From assembly GCA_947449875.1 (NCBI GenBank), contig CANFSY010000017.1:1-33127 (forward strand): DNA of 33,127 bases, in the 5' to 3' direction. This stretch comes from Paracoccaceae bacterium. GTDB taxonomy: Bacteria > Pseudomonadota > Alphaproteobacteria > Rhodobacterales > Rhodobacteraceae. Position numbers and translations under genes: made by a program. Below are positions 1 to 8,195 of this stretch, in pieces (position 1 is the stretch's first letter; each line of letters begins with the position of its first letter). A model generated the notes under the pieces. It saw only the letters and a program-made list of their open reading frames with translations. It was not told the origin of the DNA and searched no databases.

Positions 1-449
1 GACACCAGCACAATCTTGCCGCCGCGCCCTTGGGCTTTCATTTGAACCGTGGCCGCCCGCGCCAAAAGCCACGATTGCGTCACATTGGCATCCATCACGG
101 CCAAGAAGGTTTCCGGCGCCATATCGTCAATCTTGGCAACTTTGTTCATGCCAGATGCAACGACCAAAATATCCAATCCGCCAAAGGCGCTGACCGCAGC
201 CCCGACCAGCGCGCTGCAGGCCGCTTCGGTGTCGGGCCTTGTGTTGACCTCGACCACCTCTGCGCCGCCCGCGCGGCATTCGGCGGCGATGGCGGCAAGC
301 TCGTCCGCTTTGCCCGCCGCCAAAACCAAGCGGCACCCCGCCCCCGCAAAGACCCGCGCCGCAACCGCCCCAAAGGCCCCCGACGCGCCGGTGATCAGCG
401 CGACTTTGCCCTTGATATCGAACATCTCTAACGGGTTCGGCAGGCTCAT
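1..449 (-). CDS. SDR family NAD(P)-dependent oxidoreductase (C-terminus beyond window)
   Basis: Short-chain dehydrogenase/reductase, probably oxidising or reducing an alcohol/ketone with NAD(P). The visible 149 residues give the Rossmann half: VALITGASGAFG near residues 16-27 is the TGxxxGxG cofactor loop, and DANVTQSW near 120 holds the conserved structural Asn. The usual NNAG segment reads VVASG here, a departure from the family norm. The catalytic Tyr-x3-Lys lies past the window edge, so catalytic competence cannot be judged. The start ATG (449-447) overlaps the stop of the upstream cupin gene as ATGA, so the two are probably translationally coupled. It is the third gene of a minus-strand unit with the cyclase-family hydrolase and the cupin, which suggests a catabolic dehydrogenase; its substrate is unknown. 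Confidence 0.85.
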   Translation of the reverse strand, partial: MSLPNPLEMFDIKGKVALITGASGAFGAVAARVFAGAGCRLVLAAGKADELAAIAAECRAGGAEVVEVNTRPDTEAACSALVGAAVSAFGGLDILVVASGMNKVAKIDDMAPETFLAVMDANVTQSWLLARAATVQMKAQGRGGKIVLV

Positions 450-796
450 GCGGGCACCTTGGGCGGGTAAGGGATCACCACCAGCATCTTGCAGACGTGG
501 TTGGACCGGTTGACAATCTCGCGCACTTCATTCGGGGCGATGGTGACAGAATCCATCGGCCCAAGCTCGCTTTCCCGACCGGCCACGATGACGGTCATCG
601 CCCCTTCCAGCACGACATAAACCTTTTCAAACGGGGTCGAATCCGGCCCCGCCCCGCCACCGGGCAGAAATTGCGACAAGCCCAGCCATTGGTTGGTGGG
701 CCCGCCCGCCTCAAACCCCTGCAAGCGCAGACCGACCACGCCGCGGTGGTTCGGGGCCTCGTAGGGGGTTGCTTGGTCAAAGCGTTTTACCAGCAT
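446..796 (-). CDS. small cupin-domain protein
   Basis: 116-residue single-domain cupin. The beta-barrel signature is FEKVYVVLEGAMTVIV (residues 56-70) followed by a second strand set around IAPNEVREIVNRS. Canonical cupin motif 1 carries HxH before the Glu; here that stretch is PDSTPFE, with no His, and the motif-2 His is also absent, so classical metal binding looks lost. I chose the ATG at 796 because GGGAAGGG lies just upstream and the fold begins there; a longer frame reaches 880 but has no cupin-like sequence. It lies 61 bases after the cyclase gene and overlaps the SDR start by ATGA. It may be an isomerase, a ligand-binding accessory protein or a degenerate enzyme. Family assignment is firm, function unknown. 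Confidence 0.8.
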   Translation of the reverse strand: MLVKRFDQATPYEAPNHRGVVGLRLQGFEAGGPTNQWLGLSQFLPGGGAGPDSTPFEKVYVVLEGAMTVIVAGRESELGPMDSVTIAPNEVREIVNRSNHVCKMLVVIPYPPKVPA

Positions 797-857
797 GTGA
801 CTTGGCCCTTCCCTGTGATCTTGGCCTGAACGCAGCGTGCCCCGCTGTCGTGCAAGG

Positions 858-1694
858 TCAAAACGCCTCTCCCGCCTCAATCCGGTAGCCTTGGGATTTG
901 TCGATCATCGCCACCAGACGGATGATGCAGCCATCGCCGCGATCCCAGTTCCACGGGAAAAAGGCAAAGGTGCAGCGTTTGCCCGTGACAGCATCCAGAT
1001 CGCCGCCGACGTTTTCGATGCCCAAGATTCCAGCCTTGAACAAGATCTGGTGGACAGGTTCCCATTCGGGGAAATCTTCAGCCCAATCGCGTCCGCCCGA
1101 CCATTCGAAATACTCTTTCTTCAGATGCGGCAGCAGCGGGCCGTTGCGCTGCGGGCCGATGGCGGTGGCAAGGGGGTGATCATTGGCTTGGGTGTCATGG
1201 CCCACGACCTTGACGCCCTTCTTGACCATCCATTCCCCCGCCGAGGGCACAAAGCCCGGGCAATAGGCAAAGTAATCGCCGTCTTCGTACTGCTTGTGCC
1301 AGCCGGTGTTGAGGATCAGCACATCACCGGAGCGGATCGCATGGCCGCAGGCCTTTTCCAGATCTTCGCCAGTGATCGGCTCCCACTTCTTCTTGGGCAG
1401 GCTGACCACGATGCCGGTGCCAAAGAAATGCGGCAGGGGCACTTCGTTGATAAAGGGCGTGCCTTGCACCACATGGGCGGGGGCGTCGATATGGGTGGTG
1501 GCGTGCATCGTGGTGGTGATGCGTTGGCTGAGTACGCCGGATTTGGCCATGTAATGGATGCGTTCAATCTGCACATCCTGAAAATACGGCCAGTTGGGGT
1601 GTTGAAAGCCGAACCGGTGCGAGAGGTTATAGAACTCTAGCCCCATTGAATTGTCTAGATTGCCCTGGAATTCGATACCGCGCACCGTGACCAT
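858..1694 (-). CDS. cyclase-family metal-dependent hydrolase (kynurenine formamidase/isatin hydrolase superfamily)
   Basis: 278-residue protein of the putative cyclase family (PF04199), whose members hydrolyse C-N or C-O bonds in small cyclic or acylated compounds using a divalent metal. The metal motif HATTHIDAPAH (residues 64-74) matches HxGTHxDxPxH except that the Gly is Thr. A second conserved stretch, VVGHDTQANDHPL (about 163-175), follows. The ATG at 1694 is preceded by GGGGGAGG at good spacing; a longer upstream frame runs through the divergent regulator and is spurious. First gene of a minus-strand unit with cupin and SDR, transcribed away from the IclR gene. A sigma70-like promoter (TTGACC-N17-TATCGT) containing an operator palindrome lies upstream. 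Substrate unknown; ring-opened or lactone intermediates of aromatic catabolism are plausible from context. Confidence 0.85.
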   Translation of the reverse strand: MVTVRGIEFQGNLDNSMGLEFYNLSHRFGFQHPNWPYFQDVQIERIHYMAKSGVLSQRITTTMHATTHIDAPAHVVQGTPFINEVPLPHFFGTGIVVSLPKKKWEPITGEDLEKACGHAIRSGDVLILNTGWHKQYEDGDYFAYCPGFVPSAGEWMVKKGVKVVGHDTQANDHPLATAIGPQRNGPLLPHLKKEYFEWSGGRDWAEDFPEWEPVHQILFKAGILGIENVGGDLDAVTGKRCTFAFFPWNWDRGDGCIIRLVAMIDKSQGYRIEAGEAF

Positions 1695-2629: not shown

Positions 2630-3463
2630 TCATGCCAGCCCCAGCATCGTGCGGGCCTGTGCCCAAGTGGCCACGGGGCGTTCGTATTTTTCGCACAAGT
2701 CCACCGCGCGGCGCACAAGGGCGGCGTTCGACGGGGCCAAGGTGTCACGGTCAAGGCGGACGTTATCCTCCATCCCCGTGCGGGTATGCCCGCCTTTGGC
2801 GATGGCCCATTCGTTGATCGTGACTTGCGCAGGGCCGATGCCTGCGGCGCACCACAAAGCTGTGGGGGCAAGACGGGAGAGGGTTTCGATGTAAAAATCA
2901 AAGATCCGCTCATCGGCTGGCATGGCGTTCTTAACGCCCATGACGAATTGCACATAAAGCGGCGCACTCAAGCGCCCATCTTGCGCCATAGAGGCGGCTT
3001 GCACGATATGCGACAGATCGAAACATTCGATTTCCGGCTTCACCCCGTGCTTGCGCATTTCTGCGGCCAGCCAATCGACCAAATCAGGCGGGTTTTCGTA
3101 CACGCGGGTGGGAAAGTTGTTTGACCCCACCGACAGGCTGGCCATATCGGGGCGAAGGGGCAACATACCGCCGCGCGCAGTACCTGCCCCCGACCTGCCG
3201 CCGGTGGACAGCTGAATAATCATGCCGGGGCAATGGGTTTTCAGCCCCTCGACCAGTCGGGCAAAGCGGTCGGGGTCAGAGGTGGGTTTGCCCGCGTCAT
3301 CGCGCACATGGCAATGGGCGATCGTAGCCCCCGCCTCAAACGCCGCTTGGGTGCTTTCGATCTGCTCGGCAATCGTGATTGGCACGGCGGGGTTGTTGGC
3401 TTTGGTGGGCAAAGACCCGGTGATGGCCACGCAGATTATGCAGGGGGTGGCAGCGGTGCTCAT
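2630..3463 (-). CDS. BKACE / DUF849 beta-keto acid cleavage enzyme
   Basis: 277-residue member of the 3-keto-5-aminohexanoate cleavage (Kce/BKACE) family. These Zn enzymes condense a beta-keto acid with acetyl-CoA and release acetoacetate plus a new acyl-CoA. Metal ligands are recognisable as HCHVRD (His50, His52) and GMEDN (Glu232). QLSTGGRSG (84-92) and SVGSNNFP (111-118) are family-typical active-site loops. Its start overlaps the intradiol dioxygenase stop as ATGA, so it is the last gene of the hydroxyquinol unit. Given that position, 3-oxoadipate is the obvious substrate, giving succinyl-CoA and acetoacetate; this is inference. The side-chain pocket that decides substrate class cannot be assigned by eye. 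Family call is strong, substrate moderate. Confidence 0.92.
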   Translation of the reverse strand: MSTAATPCIICVAITGSLPTKANNPAVPITIAEQIESTQAAFEAGATIAHCHVRDDAGKPTSDPDRFARLVEGLKTHCPGMIIQLSTGGRSGAGTARGGMLPLRPDMASLSVGSNNFPTRVYENPPDLVDWLAAEMRKHGVKPEIECFDLSHIVQAASMAQDGRLSAPLYVQFVMGVKNAMPADERIFDFYIETLSRLAPTALWCAAGIGPAQVTINEWAIAKGGHTRTGMEDNVRLDRDTLAPSNAALVRRAVDLCEKYERPVATWAQARTMLGLA

Positions 3464-4332
3464 GCTTTGGCCGCCAGAACGAAATCATGTTCGACAAGGT
3501 GGAAGGGGCCGTCCATCCCTTCGGCTTTGATGCGGGCGGGGTCGGTGATCAGGTCGAACTTCGCCAAAAGGCTGTGCTTGACGCCAAAGACCGCATCCGA
3601 GTGGATATAGGGATCATCGGGGTCGAAGATATGGGTGACAAGCGTGTCAAACCCTTGGGCCTCAAGGATATAATGCAAATGCGCGGGGCGGAAGGGGTGC
3701 CGCCCCAAAGCCGCCAGCAGCTTGCCCACGGGGCCGTCATCGGGGATGGGGTAGAACTTGGGCTTCACCCCTTTGAACCAATAGCGCCCGTCTGCGCCGG
3801 TGCGAAACACCCCGCGCAGGTTGAAATCGGGCTGGATGCCCTTTTGCTGCACATCGTAAAAGCCTTCGTCATTGGCCTGCCAGACATCAATCTTGGCATG
3901 GGCAATGGGCTTTCCCGCCGTATCCAGAATGCGCCCCCGCACCAGCATCGGCTCGCCCTTGGCATCCAGACAGATATTGGCCCCCATGGGCAATTCGGGC
4001 GCATCGGCCAGATGGAAGGGCCCCAAAACCGTCGATTCCGACGCGCCCGAGGGTTTGCGGTTGTTGATCGCATCCACCAGCATCGACACGCCCATGATAT
4101 CGGAAAACAGGATATATTCCTGCCGCCAATCGCTGCACATCTGGCCGGTGGCGGTCAGAAATTGCAGGGCGGTCATCCATTCTTCGGTGGTCGGTTCAAT
4201 CTCTTTCACAGCGGCGTGGATATGGCGGGTTAACACCGCCATCACCTGTTGCAGCCGCTGCGATTTGGCATCCGCGTTGCGGGCAATGACAACTTCGGCG
4301 CTGTCGGTTTCGGTGAAATATCCCGGTTCCAT
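3460..4332 (-). CDS. intradiol ring-cleavage dioxygenase, probably hydroxyquinol 1,2-dioxygenase
   Basis: 290 residues. A helical N-terminal dimerisation domain (about 1-100) is followed by the catalytic beta-sandwich starting at VLGPFH. The four non-haem Fe(III) ligands are Tyr159 (DEGFYD), Tyr194 (KFYPIP), His218 and His220 (PAHLH), spaced as in catechol 1,2-dioxygenases. The length fits hydroxyquinol dioxygenases rather than the shorter chlorocatechol enzymes. No muconate cycloisomerase or dienelactone hydrolase is nearby. Hydroxyquinol cleavage gives maleylacetate directly and would not need them, which supports that substrate. The gene begins 1 base after the stop of the FAD hydroxylase and overlaps BKACE by ATGA. 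Catechol or a substituted catechol remain alternatives. Confidence 0.9.
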   Translation of the reverse strand: MEPGYFTETDSAEVVIARNADAKSQRLQQVMAVLTRHIHAAVKEIEPTTEEWMTALQFLTATGQMCSDWRQEYILFSDIMGVSMLVDAINNRKPSGASESTVLGPFHLADAPELPMGANICLDAKGEPMLVRGRILDTAGKPIAHAKIDVWQANDEGFYDVQQKGIQPDFNLRGVFRTGADGRYWFKGVKPKFYPIPDDGPVGKLLAALGRHPFRPAHLHYILEAQGFDTLVTHIFDPDDPYIHSDAVFGVKHSLLAKFDLITDPARIKAEGMDGPFHLVEHDFVLAAKA

Positions 4333-4333
4333 C

Positions 4334-6088
4334 TTAGCGCCCCAGAATAGATTTCAGCACGCGGCGCAGGTCGGCGGCGGGGCTGTCGGTCAGGCTGTCA
4401 GCGCGCCACGCAACATGGTGGTCAGGGCGCACCAGAACGCAGCCCGCATCCGACACTTCGCGCGCCCGCGCCCAATCGCCGGTGTGATCCAGCAAGGCGC
4501 GGCGCGGGCCGATCAGGCGGGTATCGATCGTAATGCCCAAGTCTGCCCCGATGGTGCGAGCGGCGTCTACCCACGCCTCGCCCCCGATGCCGGTAAACAG
4601 GGCAAAGCGGCCATGGCCGCACAGATCAAGGGTGGAATGCTTCTTGCCGGCCGCATCAAAAATCCACACATGCGGCAGGCGCGCGCCGGGCCATGTGGTG
4701 GGTTGGTAGTGCAGCACGGCGTCGAGTTCGAACGCGGGTTCCATCTGGCCATCCGTCACCACGGCGGCGCTGTGGTAGCGTTGGTTCATTTCGATGCCAT
4801 GGGCATCGAATTCGTATTTTTTAAAGGCAATCGCCTCGCGCAGGGCGGCGCGCTGCGCCTCGCCCGCGGGGGTGGCATCGGCGCGGGCCTCCATATTGGC
4901 GCGGATTTTGTCGTGATCGGTGCCGCCTGTCATGCCAAGGGCCTGAAAGATCGGGCCAAACTCGCCGATCGACTGGTTGGCGCGGGTGACGATCTGGCGC
5001 GCAATCGGCGCACGTTCGGTGGAATAGCTGTCCAGCAGCGCGGGGGCCGCTTGCCCCTTAACCACCATCGCCAGTTTCCAAGCCAAGTTGAACCCGTCTT
5101 GGATCGAGGTGTTCGACCCCAGCCCGTTTGACGGCGGATGGCGGTGCGCGGCATCGCCCATGATAAACACCCGCCCGTTTTGCATATGGGTGGCGAACAT
5201 GTTGTTCACCGTCCAAGTGTTGGCCGAGATCAGGTCAATTTCCAGATCGGGGTCGCCCACCAGTTGGCGCGCCACCTGCGTGGCCAAAGCGGCATCCACC
5301 ACGGGGGCGGGTTGGGTGATGTCATAGCCCCAAACGATCAGCCATTCGTTCCAAGGCCGCACCATCCGCACCAGCCCCATGCCGATGCCCCCCACATCCG
5401 CGCCGGGCTGCATCACCCAGTACAAAACCGACGGGCGATGGGCGACATATTTCGACAGATCGGCGCGAAACAGAATGTTCATCGACCCGCCAACGCCCAT
5501 CTTGCCTTCAAACGGCAATCCGGCGTGTTCGGCGACGAGCGAATTGCCGCCATCCGCCCCCACAAGGTATTTCGAGCGCACGGTCAAATCCTTGCCCGTC
5601 AGCTTGTCGCGGCAGGTGGTGGTAACCCCCGTGTCGTCTTGCAAATGGTGCAGGTATTCCACGCTCATCCGGCTTTGCGACCCGCGCTGGCAGGCGGTTT
5701 TGAACAAAAGCGGTTCCATAAAGGTTTGCGGCAGGTCGTTCATCTCGCAGGGCGAGGACAGCAGATGTTCGGCCTTGGACATGGGATGGGTGCCCCAAGA
5801 ATTCATCCGGCCAATCTCTTCGCCCGCAAGGCTGACGCAAAAGATGTTCTCGCCCATTTGGGCCTGCGGAGTGGCGAACAGATAGGCTTCGTCTTCCACC
5901 TCGCGGCCCAGATCGCGCAGCACCTCCATGGTGCGCTGGTTGGTGATATGGGCGCGCGGCGTGTTGGCCAGCCAGCGGTAGCGGTTGATCACCATTGTAT
6001 CCACGCCGGAGCTGGCCAAAAGGGCTGCGGTGGCCGACCCTGCGGGGCCCGTGCCGATGATCAGAACGTCGGTGGTGATGTCAGCCAT
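4334..6088 (-). CDS. single-component FAD-dependent phenol/resorcinol-type hydroxylase
   Basis: 584-residue aromatic hydroxylase of the FAD_binding_3 (PheA/TfdB) type, using NAD(P)H and O2 to add an OH ortho or para to a phenolic group. Visible motifs are GTGPAG (12-17, FAD ADP-binding), the YLVGADGGNS segment near 190 (DG motif) and GDAAHRHPPSNGLG near 310 (ribityl-binding GD motif). A thioredoxin-like C-terminal region with GIGGEAWVDAA completes the TfdB-like length. I chose the ATG at 6088, with AGAGG upstream, because the GxGxxG fold begins at once. It overlaps the maleylacetate reductase stop by 8 bases. In this operon it most likely makes hydroxyquinol, for example from resorcinol; the precise phenol is not readable. 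Confidence 0.9.
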   Translation of the reverse strand: MADITTDVLIIGTGPAGSATAALLASSGVDTMVINRYRWLANTPRAHITNQRTMEVLRDLGREVEDEAYLFATPQAQMGENIFCVSLAGEEIGRMNSWGTHPMSKAEHLLSSPCEMNDLPQTFMEPLLFKTACQRGSQSRMSVEYLHHLQDDTGVTTTCRDKLTGKDLTVRSKYLVGADGGNSLVAEHAGLPFEGKMGVGGSMNILFRADLSKYVAHRPSVLYWVMQPGADVGGIGMGLVRMVRPWNEWLIVWGYDITQPAPVVDAALATQVARQLVGDPDLEIDLISANTWTVNNMFATHMQNGRVFIMGDAAHRHPPSNGLGSNTSIQDGFNLAWKLAMVVKGQAAPALLDSYSTERAPIARQIVTRANQSIGEFGPIFQALGMTGGTDHDKIRANMEARADATPAGEAQRAALREAIAFKKYEFDAHGIEMNQRYHSAAVVTDGQMEPAFELDAVLHYQPTTWPGARLPHVWIFDAAGKKHSTLDLCGHGRFALFTGIGGEAWVDAARTIGADLGITIDTRLIGPRRALLDHTGDWARAREVSDAGCVLVRPDHHVAWRADSLTDSPAADLRRVLKSILGR

Positions 6089-7166
6089 GAGAACCTCTGG
6101 TTTGGGGGGGCTGCCCGGCCCAAGCGGCGTGCAACAGGGCAAGCAGCGCGGGCTTTTCCAAGGGGCGGGGGTTGGGATAAGGGGTTTGCGTGGCCAGATC
6201 GGCGGCGCGGTCAAGATCGTCTTCGCGCAAGCCAAGGGCTTGCAGCGACAGGGGCGCGTTCAGGCGCTGCGCCAAGGCGTGCAGCCCCTGCCCCGCAGTC
6301 TGGGCGCCCAAGATGGCGGCCAAGGGGGCCAAAAGATCGGGCACTGCCGCCTCGTTATAGGCCACGGCGTGGGGCAGGATGACGGCATGGGTCTGCGCAT
6401 GGGGCAGACCAAAGCTGCCGCCCAAAGTGTGGCACAGCTTGTGGTGCAGGCCCATGCCCACTTGGCCCAAGACCAGCCCGCATAGAAAGCCGCCATATTG
6501 GCAATCGGCCCGAGCGGTCAGATTGTGCAGGTTTTCCAGCACCTTGGGCAAGGCCGCAATCAAAACCTGCGCGCCTTGCAAGGCCAGTGTGGTGGTCAGC
6601 GGGTTGCGGTCGGGGGCATAAAGCGCCTCGACCGCATGGGCCAGCGCGTTCAGGGCAGAGGTGAGCGTGATATCAGCGGGCAAGCTGGCAATCAGCTGCG
6701 GGTCATAGATCACAACCTGTGGTTGCAGGCGCGCATCGGTCAGCGTGGTTTTGCGGCCCGCTTCGGTTTGGCCCAAAATGCCCGTCACCTCTGACCCCGC
6801 ATGGGTGGTGGGCACGGCGATATGGGGCAGGCCCGTGCGCAGCGCCAGCGCCTTGCCCAATCCCGTGACCGATCCGCCCCCAAACGAGATCAGCGCATCG
6901 GCCTTGGCGGCCAGCACTAGGGGCAAGGCGGCCAAAGTCACCTCGACCGGTGTGTGCATTGCCGCCATGGGCAAAACCGCCACCACGCCAGCGCCGATAC
7001 GGGCGGCCATGTCCTGCGCCTGTGCGGCATGGCCGGGGGTGGCCAAAAGCACAGCGCGCGACAGCGACAGGCTTTGCAAGGCGGCGGCCACCGCGGGGGC
7101 GGCCGGTTGGCCAAACTGGGCGCGCAGGGCGGCCAGTCGCAGGGCAAAGGTCGGTATTTGGGTCAT
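6081..7166 (-). CDS. maleylacetate reductase (iron-containing alcohol dehydrogenase family)
   Basis: 361 residues of the group III alcohol dehydrogenase fold. It would reduce maleylacetate to 3-oxoadipate with NAD(P)H. FGGGSVTGLGKA (95-106) is the nucleotide-binding turn; PTTHAGSEVT (119-128) and the later HHKLCHTLGG are typical of maleylacetate reductases, and lie where the metal ligands are in other family members. GGCGGAGG precedes the ATG at 7166. First gene of the four-gene unit, divergent from a LysR gene; the reductase and the FAD hydroxylase overlap by 8 bases. It runs directly into the ring-cleavage genes, fitting the hydroxyquinol branch of the 3-oxoadipate pathway. Confidence 0.93.
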   Translation of the reverse strand: MTQIPTFALRLAALRAQFGQPAAPAVAAALQSLSLSRAVLLATPGHAAQAQDMAARIGAGVVAVLPMAAMHTPVEVTLAALPLVLAAKADALISFGGGSVTGLGKALALRTGLPHIAVPTTHAGSEVTGILGQTEAGRKTTLTDARLQPQVVIYDPQLIASLPADITLTSALNALAHAVEALYAPDRNPLTTTLALQGAQVLIAALPKVLENLHNLTARADCQYGGFLCGLVLGQVGMGLHHKLCHTLGGSFGLPHAQTHAVILPHAVAYNEAAVPDLLAPLAAILGAQTAGQGLHALAQRLNAPLSLQALGLREDDLDRAADLATQTPYPNPRPLEKPALLALLHAAWAGQPPQTRGSHG

Positions 7167-7231: not shown

Positions 7232-7246
7232 ATACCATTTTGATAT
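7232..7246. promoter_or_regulatory. candidate LysR box (ATACCA-N3-TGATAT)
   Basis: Imperfect palindrome with a T-N11-A core, pairing 5 of 6 bases per arm. It lies in the divergent gap between the maleylacetate reductase and the LysR gene and overlaps the LysR start codon at 7245. Form and place suit autoregulation, but the motif is short and AT-rich. Confidence 0.35.
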
Positions 7247-8195
7247 GAAGATAGATCCCAGACAGCTTGAAATCCTTGCCGCCATCGTTCAGGCGGGCGG
7301 CTTGACCGAGGGGGCGGCCCTTTTGGGCAAATCGCAACCGGCCCTGTCACGGTCGGTCGCAGCGCTAGAGGCGCGCTTGGGCAGTGCGCTGTTCGTGCCC
7401 GGTCGCCGCCCTTTGCAGCCGACGGACCTTGGCGCGCGCTTGGCCGAGGAGGGAGCGCGCATTCTTCAGGCAGCGCAGGCCGCAGCTCATGCGGTGCAAA
7501 GTTACCGGTTGGGCAAGGCGGGGGCGGTGCGCGTGGCGGGCACGCCGGTGTTCATGGACGGGGTGATTGTGGCAATGATCGCAGGGTTTCAGGCGCAAAA
7601 CCCCGATGTGCGGCTGGAACAAAGCTATGGCTATGCGCCCGATCTTGCGGCATCGGTGCAAAGCGGGGCGCTGGATCTGGCGATTTGCCCGCTGCGGCCG
7701 GATGATCTGCCCGAGGGGTTGGCCTTTGACACGCTATTGGCTGGCCGAAACGTGATTGCAGCGCGCGAAGGCCACCCCTTGCTGCATGGCCATGCAGTGA
7801 CGGCGGCGGACTTGTTGCGCTTTCCCTGGATCGCCCCGCCGACCAACAGCCCGCTTTACGCCGATTTGCAGCGCGTCTTGTCGAAGATCAGCACCGAACA
7901 AATCCGCATCAGCTATTCGGGCGGCAGCCTGTCGGCGGTGATGGGAATGCTGGCGGGGTCTGACAGTTTGACGGTTTTGCCCTATTCGGTGCTGTTCGCG
8001 CTGCGGCGGCAATATCGGGTGGCGGCGCTGTCGATCCGCATCGAACACCCCGAGCGCAAATTGGGCCTGATGTATCGCAGCCCCCAAGACCTAAGCCCCG
8101 CCGCGCGGCGTTTGCGCACCTATCTGAGCGGTCAGTTTGACACATTGGCCGCCACGATCCAGCATCACGAACGGCACGTCTTGTGGCGCAGATAG
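7245..8195 (+). CDS. LysR-family transcriptional regulator (hydroxyquinol operon)
   Basis: 316 residues. The N-terminal winged helix-turn-helix (about 1-62) reads RQLEILAAIVQAGG then SQPALSRSVAALEARLG, and an effector-binding domain runs from about 92 to 300 (VAGTPVFMDG onward). It lacks a plasmid- or phage-like signature and matches its neighbours in base composition. It is transcribed away from the maleylacetate reductase across 78 bases, the classic LysR arrangement in which the regulator activates the divergent operon with a pathway compound as inducer. It ends 8 bases before the convergent stop of the chemoreceptor-like gene. Its role on the hydroxyquinol genes is inferred from position. 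Confidence 0.92.
   Translation: MKIDPRQLEILAAIVQAGGLTEGAALLGKSQPALSRSVAALEARLGSALFVPGRRPLQPTDLGARLAEEGARILQAAQAAAHAVQSYRLGKAGAVRVAGTPVFMDGVIVAMIAGFQAQNPDVRLEQSYGYAPDLAASVQSGALDLAICPLRPDDLPEGLAFDTLLAGRNVIAAREGHPLLHGHAVTAADLLRFPWIAPPTNSPLYADLQRVLSKISTEQIRISYSGGSLSAVMGMLAGSDSLTVLPYSVLFALRRQYRVAALSIRIEHPERKLGLMYRSPQDLSPAARRLRTYLSGQFDTLAATIQHHERHVLWRR

What the first reader, a model, noticed from the sequence alone, without database searches (positions are those of the whole stretch)
2630..7166. Hydroxyquinol operon that ends in a BKACE enzyme instead of CoA-transferase plus thiolase
Seen: four minus-strand genes overlapping or 1 base apart encode maleylacetate reductase, FAD hydroxylase, intradiol dioxygenase (Tyr159, Tyr194, His218, His220) and a DUF849 protein with HCHVRD and GMEDN. 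Known: hydroxyquinol cleavage gives maleylacetate, then 3-oxoadipate, normally finished by PcaIJ and PcaF; BKACE enzymes cleave beta-keto acids with acetyl-CoA to acetoacetate and an acyl-CoA. Inferred: BKACE converts 3-oxoadipate plus acetyl-CoA to succinyl-CoA plus acetoacetate in one step, skipping activation.
Basis: partly seen in the sequence, partly recalled or inferred. Interest (0 to 1): 0.72.

Follow-up and report, generated by a model that had tools for sequence, protein, structure and literature searches.

The report
Hydroxyquinol operon ending in 3-oxoadipate-cleaving enzyme
A bacterium's genes for breaking down a phenol ring end in a single enzyme that most likely cuts the last ring fragment directly into succinyl-CoA and acetoacetate, a shortcut already proposed for two sister pathways and here seen to recur in a third.

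Summary
Four overlapping or abutting minus-strand genes (7166-2630) encode maleylacetate reductase, a flavin phenol hydroxylase, a hydroxyquinol-type intradiol dioxygenase and a BKACE (DUF849) enzyme. The proposed reaction is very probably right too, but not new: the BKACE scores 488.8 bits (cut-off 350) on NCBIfam NF053568, "3-oxoadipate:acetyl-CoA acetyltransferase", and papers of 2019-2025 propose the step for the protocatechuate and catechol arms.

What I add: (1) close relatives sit with ring-cleavage genes of all three ortho arms (of 80 loci: 46 protocatechuate, 4 catechol-type, 3 hydroxyquinol, 27 neither). (2) BKACE follows the dioxygenase in 16 of 41 hydroxyquinol loci of the window's family (14 genera with the window's own) and 0 of 26 outside it. 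(3) In sister operons the slot holds CoA-transferase genes plus PcaF. (4) "Skipping activation" is overstated: these steps move to acetoacetate, with the same net balance. (5) The genome also holds an orphan PcaF and ScoAB, so the classical exit is not excluded. (6) The operon adjoins a phloroglucinol-type cluster with its own BKACE; both arms would converge on acetoacetate. No activity was assayed.

The parts
6081..7166 (-). maleylacetate reductase (iron-containing alcohol dehydrogenase family)
   Evidence: 3w5s maleylacetate reductase, 366 bits
4334..6088 (-). flavin-dependent phenol hydroxylase (2-hydroxybiphenyl / 2,4-dichlorophenol hydroxylase kin)
   Evidence: start at ATG 6088 chosen from the reading frame
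3460..4332 (-). intradiol dioxygenase, hydroxyquinol 1,2-dioxygenase type; Tyr159, Tyr194, His218, His220
2630..3463 (-). BKACE (PF05853), NF053568 3-oxoadipate:acetyl-CoA acetyltransferase; His50, His52, Arg90, Arg228, Glu232, Asp233
   Evidence: (488.8 bits, cut-off 350)
7245..8195 (+). divergent LysR regulator, probable regulator of the operon
   Evidence: same place in L176-L179 and L181
1884..2627 (+). IclR regulator, convergent with BKACE (2 bases apart)
   Evidence: borders the dioxygenase directly in G396 and G392, which lack BKACE here
861..1694 (-). cyclase-family (PF04199) hydrolase, candidate dihydrophloroglucinol cyclohydrolase of the neighbouring cluster
   Evidence: family match only
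449..799 (-). cupin protein of the neighbouring cluster
3..449 (-). SDR, N-terminal 149 residues (contig end), candidate phloroglucinol reductase; residues 142-264 lie at the end of contig C40
   Evidence: (full-length SDR of G389; nearest solved chain 5g4k, 188 bits)

Best explanation
A hydroxyquinol operon, probably LysR-controlled. The hydroxylase turns a phenol (resorcinol or a relative) into hydroxyquinol; the dioxygenase opens it to maleylacetate; the reductase gives 3-oxoadipate; BKACE transfers the acetyl end of 3-oxoadipate onto acetyl-CoA, giving succinyl-CoA and acetoacetate. Acetoacetate is then activated by ScoAB and split by acetoacetyl-CoA thiolase, so the net yield (3-oxoadipate + CoA to succinate + acetyl-CoA) equals that of PcaIJ/PcaF. 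One gene plus ketone-body enzymes replaces three dedicated genes. Shown: gene order, families, residues, recurrence, slot swap. Inferred: every chemical step.
For: NF053568 488.8 bits against cut-off 350. Of 80 named relatives (77-86% identity), 46 lie with protocatechuate dioxygenase (PcaG immediately upstream in 42 of 46), 4 with a catechol-type dioxygenase (in L021 beside a benzoate dioxygenase subunit over its cut-off), 3 with the hydroxyquinol dioxygenase; the product common to the three arms is 3-oxoadipate. BKACE directly follows the dioxygenase in 16 of 67 hydroxyquinol loci examined, all 16 among the 41 of family f1, in 13 genera besides the window's genus. Slot swaps: dioxygenase-PcaI-PcaJ-PcaF in L151 and L152; PcaC-H-G, two CoA-transferase-like genes, PcaF, PcaB in G413 against PcaC-H-G-BKACE-PcaB in G397. 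ScoA starts right after BKACE in 5 of 80 loci (the three scanned pass the ScoA/PcaI family model), as acetoacetate release predicts. Arg90 invariant in 117 of 117 rows of this clade (115 different), absent in 5 of 5 paralogues of the genome. Among 37 family-f1 genomes, 0 of 25 with a ring-cleavage route lack both BKACE and PcaF, against 6 of 12 without one (Fisher p 0.0004; sorted by hand).
Against: No assay. The genome has PcaF (C4) and ScoAB (C58), so the classical exit is possible. 22 of 80 relatives show no ring-cleavage or pca gene of my query set within 9.5 kb, 13 of them with at least 3 kb on both sides; several of the ten loci tiled look like lone genes by eye. 9 of 80 loci have PcaF nearby; 7 of these, Halomonadaceae, also carry two CoA-transferase genes (PF01144 members, below the NCBIfam PcaI/PcaJ cut-offs), so BKACE can coexist with the classical exit. 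PcaF is as common in genomes with the linked BKACE (12 of 17) as in family members with an unlinked hydroxyquinol locus (13 of 19) (sorted). Linkage was absent from 26 of 26 loci outside the family.
Confidence: 0.85

Rival explanations
1. BKACE belongs to the neighbouring cyclase-cupin-SDR-3HCDH cluster and cleaves triacetate (3,5-dioxohexanoate) in a phloroglucinol route, as in Clostridium scatologenes.
For: Cyclase, SDR and 3HCDH genes lie next to it in relatives and match the four-enzyme cluster of PMC10470551 (passages); the SDR's best solved match is 5g4k.
Against: The window BKACE scores 162.7 on the 3,5-dioxohexanoate model NF053538 (cut-off 430); that cluster has its own second BKACE, 520.8 bits on NF053538; the window BKACE overlaps the dioxygenase gene by 4 nt and lies on the far side of the IclR gene.
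Confidence: 0.05
2. The operon's 3-oxoadipate is finished by the orphan PcaF plus ScoAB acting as PcaIJ, and BKACE is an accessory or salvage enzyme.
For: Both are present in the genome; Halomonadaceae carry BKACE, CoA-transferase genes and PcaF in one cluster; PcaF is present in 12 of 17 genomes with linked BKACE.
Against: 5 of those 17, including near relative G388, have no PcaF match; BKACE and the CoA-transferase-PcaF set occupy the same slot in sister operons; no aromatic genes were recognised around the orphan PcaF (by eye).
Confidence: 0.08
3. BKACE cleaves a substituted 3-oxoadipate (chloro- or methyl-) because the hydroxylase and dioxygenase act on substituted phenols.
For: Nearest solved dioxygenase is a 6-chlorohydroxyquinol enzyme and the second-best hydroxylase group is 2,4-dichlorophenol 6-monooxygenase.
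Against: The same BKACE clade serves protocatechuate operons, which give unsubstituted 3-oxoadipate; maleylacetate reductases also remove chlorine, giving plain 3-oxoadipate (recalled).
Confidence: 0.05

Closest known systems
kce (DUF849) in pca operons of Methylobacterium (PMC8963497 and PMC12379598, passages read)
   Same: BKACE stands in place of PcaIJ/PcaF; proposed 3-oxoadipate + acetyl-CoA to succinyl-CoA + acetoacetate; a plasmid with pcaHGBL plus kce (and vanABK) let M. extorquens grow on protocatechuate
   Different: Protocatechuate arm, not hydroxyquinol; kce itself was not assayed or deleted in the passages I saw
COG3246 protein in a CatM/BenM-regulated operon of Ralstonia eutropha H16 (PMC6449761, passages)
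   Same: Suggested beta-ketoadipate cleavage enzyme in ortho cleavage
   Different: Catechol arm; prediction only
NCBIfam NF053568, 3-oxoadipate:acetyl-CoA acetyltransferase
   Same: Window BKACE is 138.8 bits over the cut-off
   Different: A model name; the assay behind it (recalled: Bastard et al. 2014, not held) was not read
[quoted passage not shown]
   Same: Same superfamily; metal and catalytic residues aligned
   Different: 252.6 bits against cut-off 382; the position that aligns with Kce Glu14 is Leu18 (mapping mine)
Triacetate acetoacetate-lyase cluster of Clostridium scatologenes (PMC10470551, passages)
   Same: Resembles the neighbouring cyclase-SDR-3HCDH-second BKACE cluster
   Different: Not the finding's BKACE; a different NCBIfam subfamily
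Hydroxyquinol clusters with CoA-transferase and PcaF nearby: Paracoccus versutus pTAV3 and L151/L152
   Same: Kindred hydroxylase and hydroxyquinol-type dioxygenase in all three, with maleylacetate reductase and LysR in pTAV3
   Different: Exit by CoA-transferase and 3-oxoadipyl-CoA thiolase; no BKACE in the stretches seen

Membership tests
BKACE (PF05853) | Profile match over the curated cut-off | tested here: met
   319 bits, cut-off 24.8
BKACE (PF05853) | Metal and catalytic residues (two His, Glu, Arg, Asp; roles recalled from Kce) | tested here: met
   His50, His52, Arg228, Glu232, Asp233 present in the window and in 117 of 117 rows
BKACE (PF05853) | Acetyl-CoA-dependent cleavage of a beta-keto acid | not testable with these tools
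   needs an assay
NF053568 3-oxoadipate:acetyl-CoA acetyltransferase | Score over the equivalog cut-off | tested here: met
   488.8 against 350
NF053568 3-oxoadipate:acetyl-CoA acetyltransferase | Context of 3-oxoadipate-forming genes | tested here: met
   MAR and hydroxyquinol-type dioxygenase in the operon; 53 of 80 relatives lie with one of three ring-cleavage enzymes, 5 with PcaB/PcaD/QuiC-like genes only, 22 with none found
[quoted passage not shown] acidic residue for the amino group (Glu14) | tested here: not met
   252.6 against 382; the aligned residue is Leu18 (that Glu14 is chain residue 20 is my mapping)
NF053538 3,5-dioxohexanoate (triacetate) BKACE | Score over cut-off | tested here: not met
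   162.7 against 430; the genome's C24 and C40 paralogues do meet it
Hydroxyquinol pathway | Hydroxyquinol-type intradiol dioxygenase plus maleylacetate reductase | tested here: met
   by nearest solved relatives only, no NCBIfam cut-off passed
Hydroxyquinol pathway | Hydroxylase that makes hydroxyquinol from a dihydroxybenzene | tested here: inconclusive
   nearest solved kin are 2-hydroxybiphenyl and 2,4-dichlorophenol hydroxylases
Classical PcaIJ/PcaF exit | CoA-transferase and 3-oxoadipyl-CoA thiolase genes in the operon | tested here: not met
   none in the operon; PcaF on C4 and ScoAB on C58 elsewhere

The most novel reading that the evidence does not exclude
The window is half of a two-BKACE polyphenol island: an oxidative hydroxyquinol arm ending in a 3-oxoadipate BKACE, and a reductive phloroglucinol arm (SDR, cyclase, 3HCDH, LIV-type transporter) ending in a triacetate BKACE. 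Ring opening by two different chemistries would converge on acetoacetate, fed to shared ScoAB and thiolase. In this family the 3-oxoadipate BKACE behaves as an exchangeable exit cassette that stands in protocatechuate, catechol and hydroxyquinol operons in place of a CoA-transferase plus PcaF.
Probability: 0.5. Interest if true: 0.58.

Novelty: new variant of a known kind. Interest (0 to 1): 0.42.

Why it matters
Pathway models that call ortho ring cleavage complete only when PcaIJ and PcaF are present would miss this route: in 8 of 25 ring-cleaving genomes of this family this BKACE was found and no PcaF match. The hydroxyquinol arm with this exit was not found in the held literature. The slot swaps give a direct bench test of whether one enzyme can replace three, and the neighbouring second BKACE suggests acetoacetate as a shared hub for polyphenol breakdown.

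Tried and rejected
Considered that BKACE served the neighbouring phloroglucinol-type cluster: rejected on family scores and because that cluster has its own BKACE. Considered that the linkage was confined to close relatives: one search gave only three same-genus cases, but a wider family search gave 13 more. Considered that PcaF is missing wherever BKACE is linked: false (12 of 17 have it). Co-absence over 38 genomes (0 lacking both) is not significant alone (p 0.16). The number of entries of BKACE into hydroxyquinol operons is unresolved: 8 label changes on the tree of 117 rows with 2 forced by well-supported branches, 5 with 3 forced on an earlier tree of 110 rows. Promoter and terminator scan: 3 promoter-like sites against a mean of 1.3 in shuffles and 5 terminator-like sites against 5.1, nothing to use; the LysR pattern T-N11-A is uninformative. 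DNA search of plasmids: in the ten rows listed of 433 records the match does not reach the BKACE part of the query. No structure was predicted, since close solved relatives exist (3fa5, 495 bits; 3chv; 3no5). PMC6365646 (passages) concerns a deoxyribonate BKACE and was not used.

Rows dropped and limits: of the dioxygenase places listed I examined 67 with their surroundings (27 of the 55 places; the other 40), leaving out mostly weaker matches (54-63% identity, mostly 45% or less) and one gene with five stops. In two of the 67 (L159, L286) fewer than 400 bases were held downstream, so BKACE could not have been seen. The tree left out a duplicate of the window, a partial gene and the five paralogues. 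The 25/12 split behind the Fisher test was made by hand with a cut (PcaH model match, or dioxygenase match at E 1e-95) chosen after seeing the data; weaker intradiol matches exist in some of the 12. Context labels are best tblastn hits to a query set partly named by NCBIfam and partly by eye (PobA). The catechol-type query passes no NCBIfam cut-off, the QuiC-like one only half of its cut-off.
Full report
OBSERVATION. The window is contig C17 of an incomplete genome (3.05 Mb, 179 contigs, 86.6% complete), so absence claims about this genome are soft. The four genes are present as described. They overlap by 8 nt, are 1 nt apart, and overlap by 4 nt (ATGA) in turn, which fits one transcription unit. 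The named residues are correct. A LysR gene diverges from the operon and an IclR gene converges on it.

IDENTITY OF THE PARTS. The reductase is nearest to solved maleylacetate reductases. The dioxygenase is nearest to 6-chlorohydroxyquinol and hydroxyquinol 1,2-dioxygenases, clearly ahead of catechol enzymes. The hydroxylase is kin to 2-hydroxybiphenyl 3-monooxygenase and 2,4-dichlorophenol 6-monooxygenase, so its substrate is open. The BKACE is nearest to three solved but unassigned proteins (3fa5, 3chv, 3no5) and passes the NCBIfam equivalog NF053568, 3-oxoadipate:acetyl-CoA acetyltransferase, by 138.8 bits. It fails the models for lysine-fermentation Kce and for 3,5-dioxohexanoate cleavage. 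The genome has five further BKACE genes: two pass the 3,5-dioxohexanoate model, three pass none.

RESIDUES. In 117 of 117 aligned rows of this clade (115 different) the two histidines (50, 52), Arg228, Glu232 and Asp233 are kept, and so is Arg90 in the STGGRSG loop. The five paralogues have Val, Lys or Met at Arg90 and Kce has Ala there. The position aligned with Kce Glu14, which contacts the substrate amino group (PMC10470551, passage), is Leu18 here (numbering mapped by me). A switch from an acidic contact to an invariant arginine fits a dicarboxylic substrate. That is inference; no structure was examined.

CONTEXT OF RELATIVES. Of 80, 46 lie with protocatechuate 3,4-dioxygenase, 4 with a catechol-type dioxygenase, 3 with the hydroxyquinol dioxygenase, 5 with PcaB, PcaD or a QuiC-like gene only, and 22 with none of these; 13 of the 22 have at least 3 kb on both sides. 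PcaG is immediately upstream in 42 of the 46. The catechol-type dioxygenase is below NCBIfam cut-offs, but in L021 it lies with a benzoate dioxygenase small subunit over its cut-off (244.3 against 225.55) and a truncated large-subunit match below it (677.1 against 780.95), which points to benzoate and catechol. The common product of the three arms is 3-oxoadipate. ScoA follows BKACE directly in 5 of 80 loci; the three scanned pass the PcaI/ScoA family model, and the matching ScoB of the window's genome is nearest to succinyl-CoA:3-ketoacid CoA-transferase. That is expected if acetoacetate is the product. Nine of 80 loci hold PcaF nearby (52-100% identity to a PcaF named by model); seven of them, Halomonadaceae, also hold two CoA-transferase genes (PF01144, below the NCBIfam PcaI/PcaJ cut-offs). 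This speaks against strict replacement.

RECURRENCE IN HYDROXYQUINOL OPERONS. Sixty-seven loci around hydroxyquinol-type dioxygenases were examined. BKACE is the next gene in 16 of 67: 16 of 41 in the window's family, 0 of 26 outside it; in two loci (L159, L286) too little downstream sequence was held. The 16 comprise three same-genus genomes and 13 genomes of 13 other genera; the window itself is a further case, and a second dioxygenase of G478 also adjoins a BKACE. Three named loci add cases (L017, L034, L056; L056 has the same BKACE protein as G680).

SLOT SWAPS. In L151 and L152 the kindred hydroxylase and dioxygenase (72-74% identity) are followed by genes passing the PcaI/ScoA and PcaJ/ScoB family models and by PcaF (by model in both) where the window has BKACE. 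In G413 the protocatechuate operon reads PcaC-H-G, two CoA-transferase-like genes, PcaF, PcaB; in G397 it reads PcaC-H-G-BKACE-PcaB. In G396 and G392, of the window's genus, the dioxygenase borders IclR directly without BKACE, and NF053568 members lie elsewhere in those genomes. So BKACE was inserted or lost at this junction.

GENOME-LEVEL COMPLEMENTARITY. Among 37 genomes of the family have PcaH and 14 of these have NF053568, 12 with both within 3 kb; the two without (G394, G413) have PcaF. Eight of 25 genomes with a ring-cleavage route have BKACE but no PcaF match. None of the 25 lacks both, against 6 of 12 without such a route (Fisher p 0.0004; hand-sorted, cut chosen afterwards). In a set of 38 genomes, partly the same ones, none lacks both, but this is not significant (p 0.16). 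PcaF presence does not differ between genomes with linked BKACE (12 of 17) and unlinked ones of the family (13 of 19).

BIOCHEMISTRY. By bookkeeping from known reactions, BKACE + ScoAB + acetoacetyl-CoA thiolase gives 3-oxoadipate + CoA to succinate + acetyl-CoA, as PcaIJ + PcaF does. The route does not avoid activation; it moves it to acetoacetate. The likely gain is one dedicated gene instead of three, or access to ketone-body and polyhydroxybutyrate pools.

PRIOR ART. Passages were read of PMC8963497 (Methylobacterium pca clusters lack pcaI, pcaJ and pcaF genes and almost all carry DUF849), PMC12379598 (same step proposed; M. extorquens carrying pcaHGBL with kce, and vanABK, grows on protocatechuate), PMC6449761 (COG3246 protein suggested as beta-ketoadipate cleavage enzyme in R. 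eutropha H16) and PMC4922564 (beta-ketoadipate listed for a subgroup of BKACE group G3; PMC8963497 speaks of group G4). Searches pairing BKACE terms with hydroxyquinol or maleylacetate found 0 papers in a library that misses most subscription journals.

THE NEIGHBOURING CLUSTER. In G389 and G390 the order beyond IclR is cyclase, cupin, SDR, 3HCDH, substrate-binding protein (families) and, by eye, LIV-type ABC transporter genes; in G390 a second BKACE (524.2 bits on NF053538, cut-off 430) follows, while the G389 contig ends before it. In the window's genome the same genes are split over C17 and C40: the SDR's residues 1-149 are at the start of C17 and 142-264 at the end of C40. The set resembles the phloroglucinol route of C. 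scatologenes (reductase, cyclohydrolase, dehydrogenase, triacetate lyase; PMC10470551 passages), whose authors report such clusters in marine alphaproteobacteria. The SDR's best solved match is 5g4k, which I recall as phloroglucinol reductase.

VERDICT. A real, recurrent operon. The proposed reaction is well supported by family and context and was already known or proposed for sister arms; the hydroxyquinol arm is a new variant.

Noticed in passing
window 3-1694 (minus) and G000:C40 (L240): A phloroglucinol-type reductive cluster (SDR, cyclase, cupin, 3HCDH, LIV-type transporter, second BKACE of the 3,5-dioxohexanoate family) adjoins the operon, split over two contigs.
   Followed up: partly
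G000:C4:36201-37394 (L192:8178-9398): Orphan 3-oxoadipyl-CoA thiolase (PcaF, 669.9 bits) with no aromatic genes recognised by eye around it.
   Followed up: partly
L181 (G399): Same-genus operon whose dioxygenase match stops at residue 225 and runs into an RNase D-like gene (by eye), with BKACE, IclR and the cyclase missing from the stretch: natural deletion or misassembly.
   Followed up: no
G567:C7:77287-78105 (L285): BKACE next to the dioxygenase carries one in-frame TGA; the genome has a second copy without stops.
   Followed up: no
G457:C8:263326-264183: Hydroxyquinol-type dioxygenase with five in-frame stops, probably a decaying gene.
   Followed up: no
L023, L024, L020, L022, L030: BKACE in clusters with a QuiC-like gene (3-dehydroshikimate dehydratase model, 673.4 bits, below its cut-off of 1200), in L023 and L024 with TRAP-type transporter-like genes by eye, suggesting quinate/shikimate use through the same exit.
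   Followed up: partly
L063, L076, L080, L084, L088, L089, L091 (Halomonadaceae): Two CoA-transferase genes, PcaF and BKACE in one cluster: two exits side by side, unexplained.
   Followed up: partly
L296 (Paracoccus versutus pTAV3): Hydroxyquinol cluster with arylsulfatase and formylglycine-generating enzyme beside CoA-transferase and pcaF, suggesting sulfated phenols as substrate.
   Followed up: no
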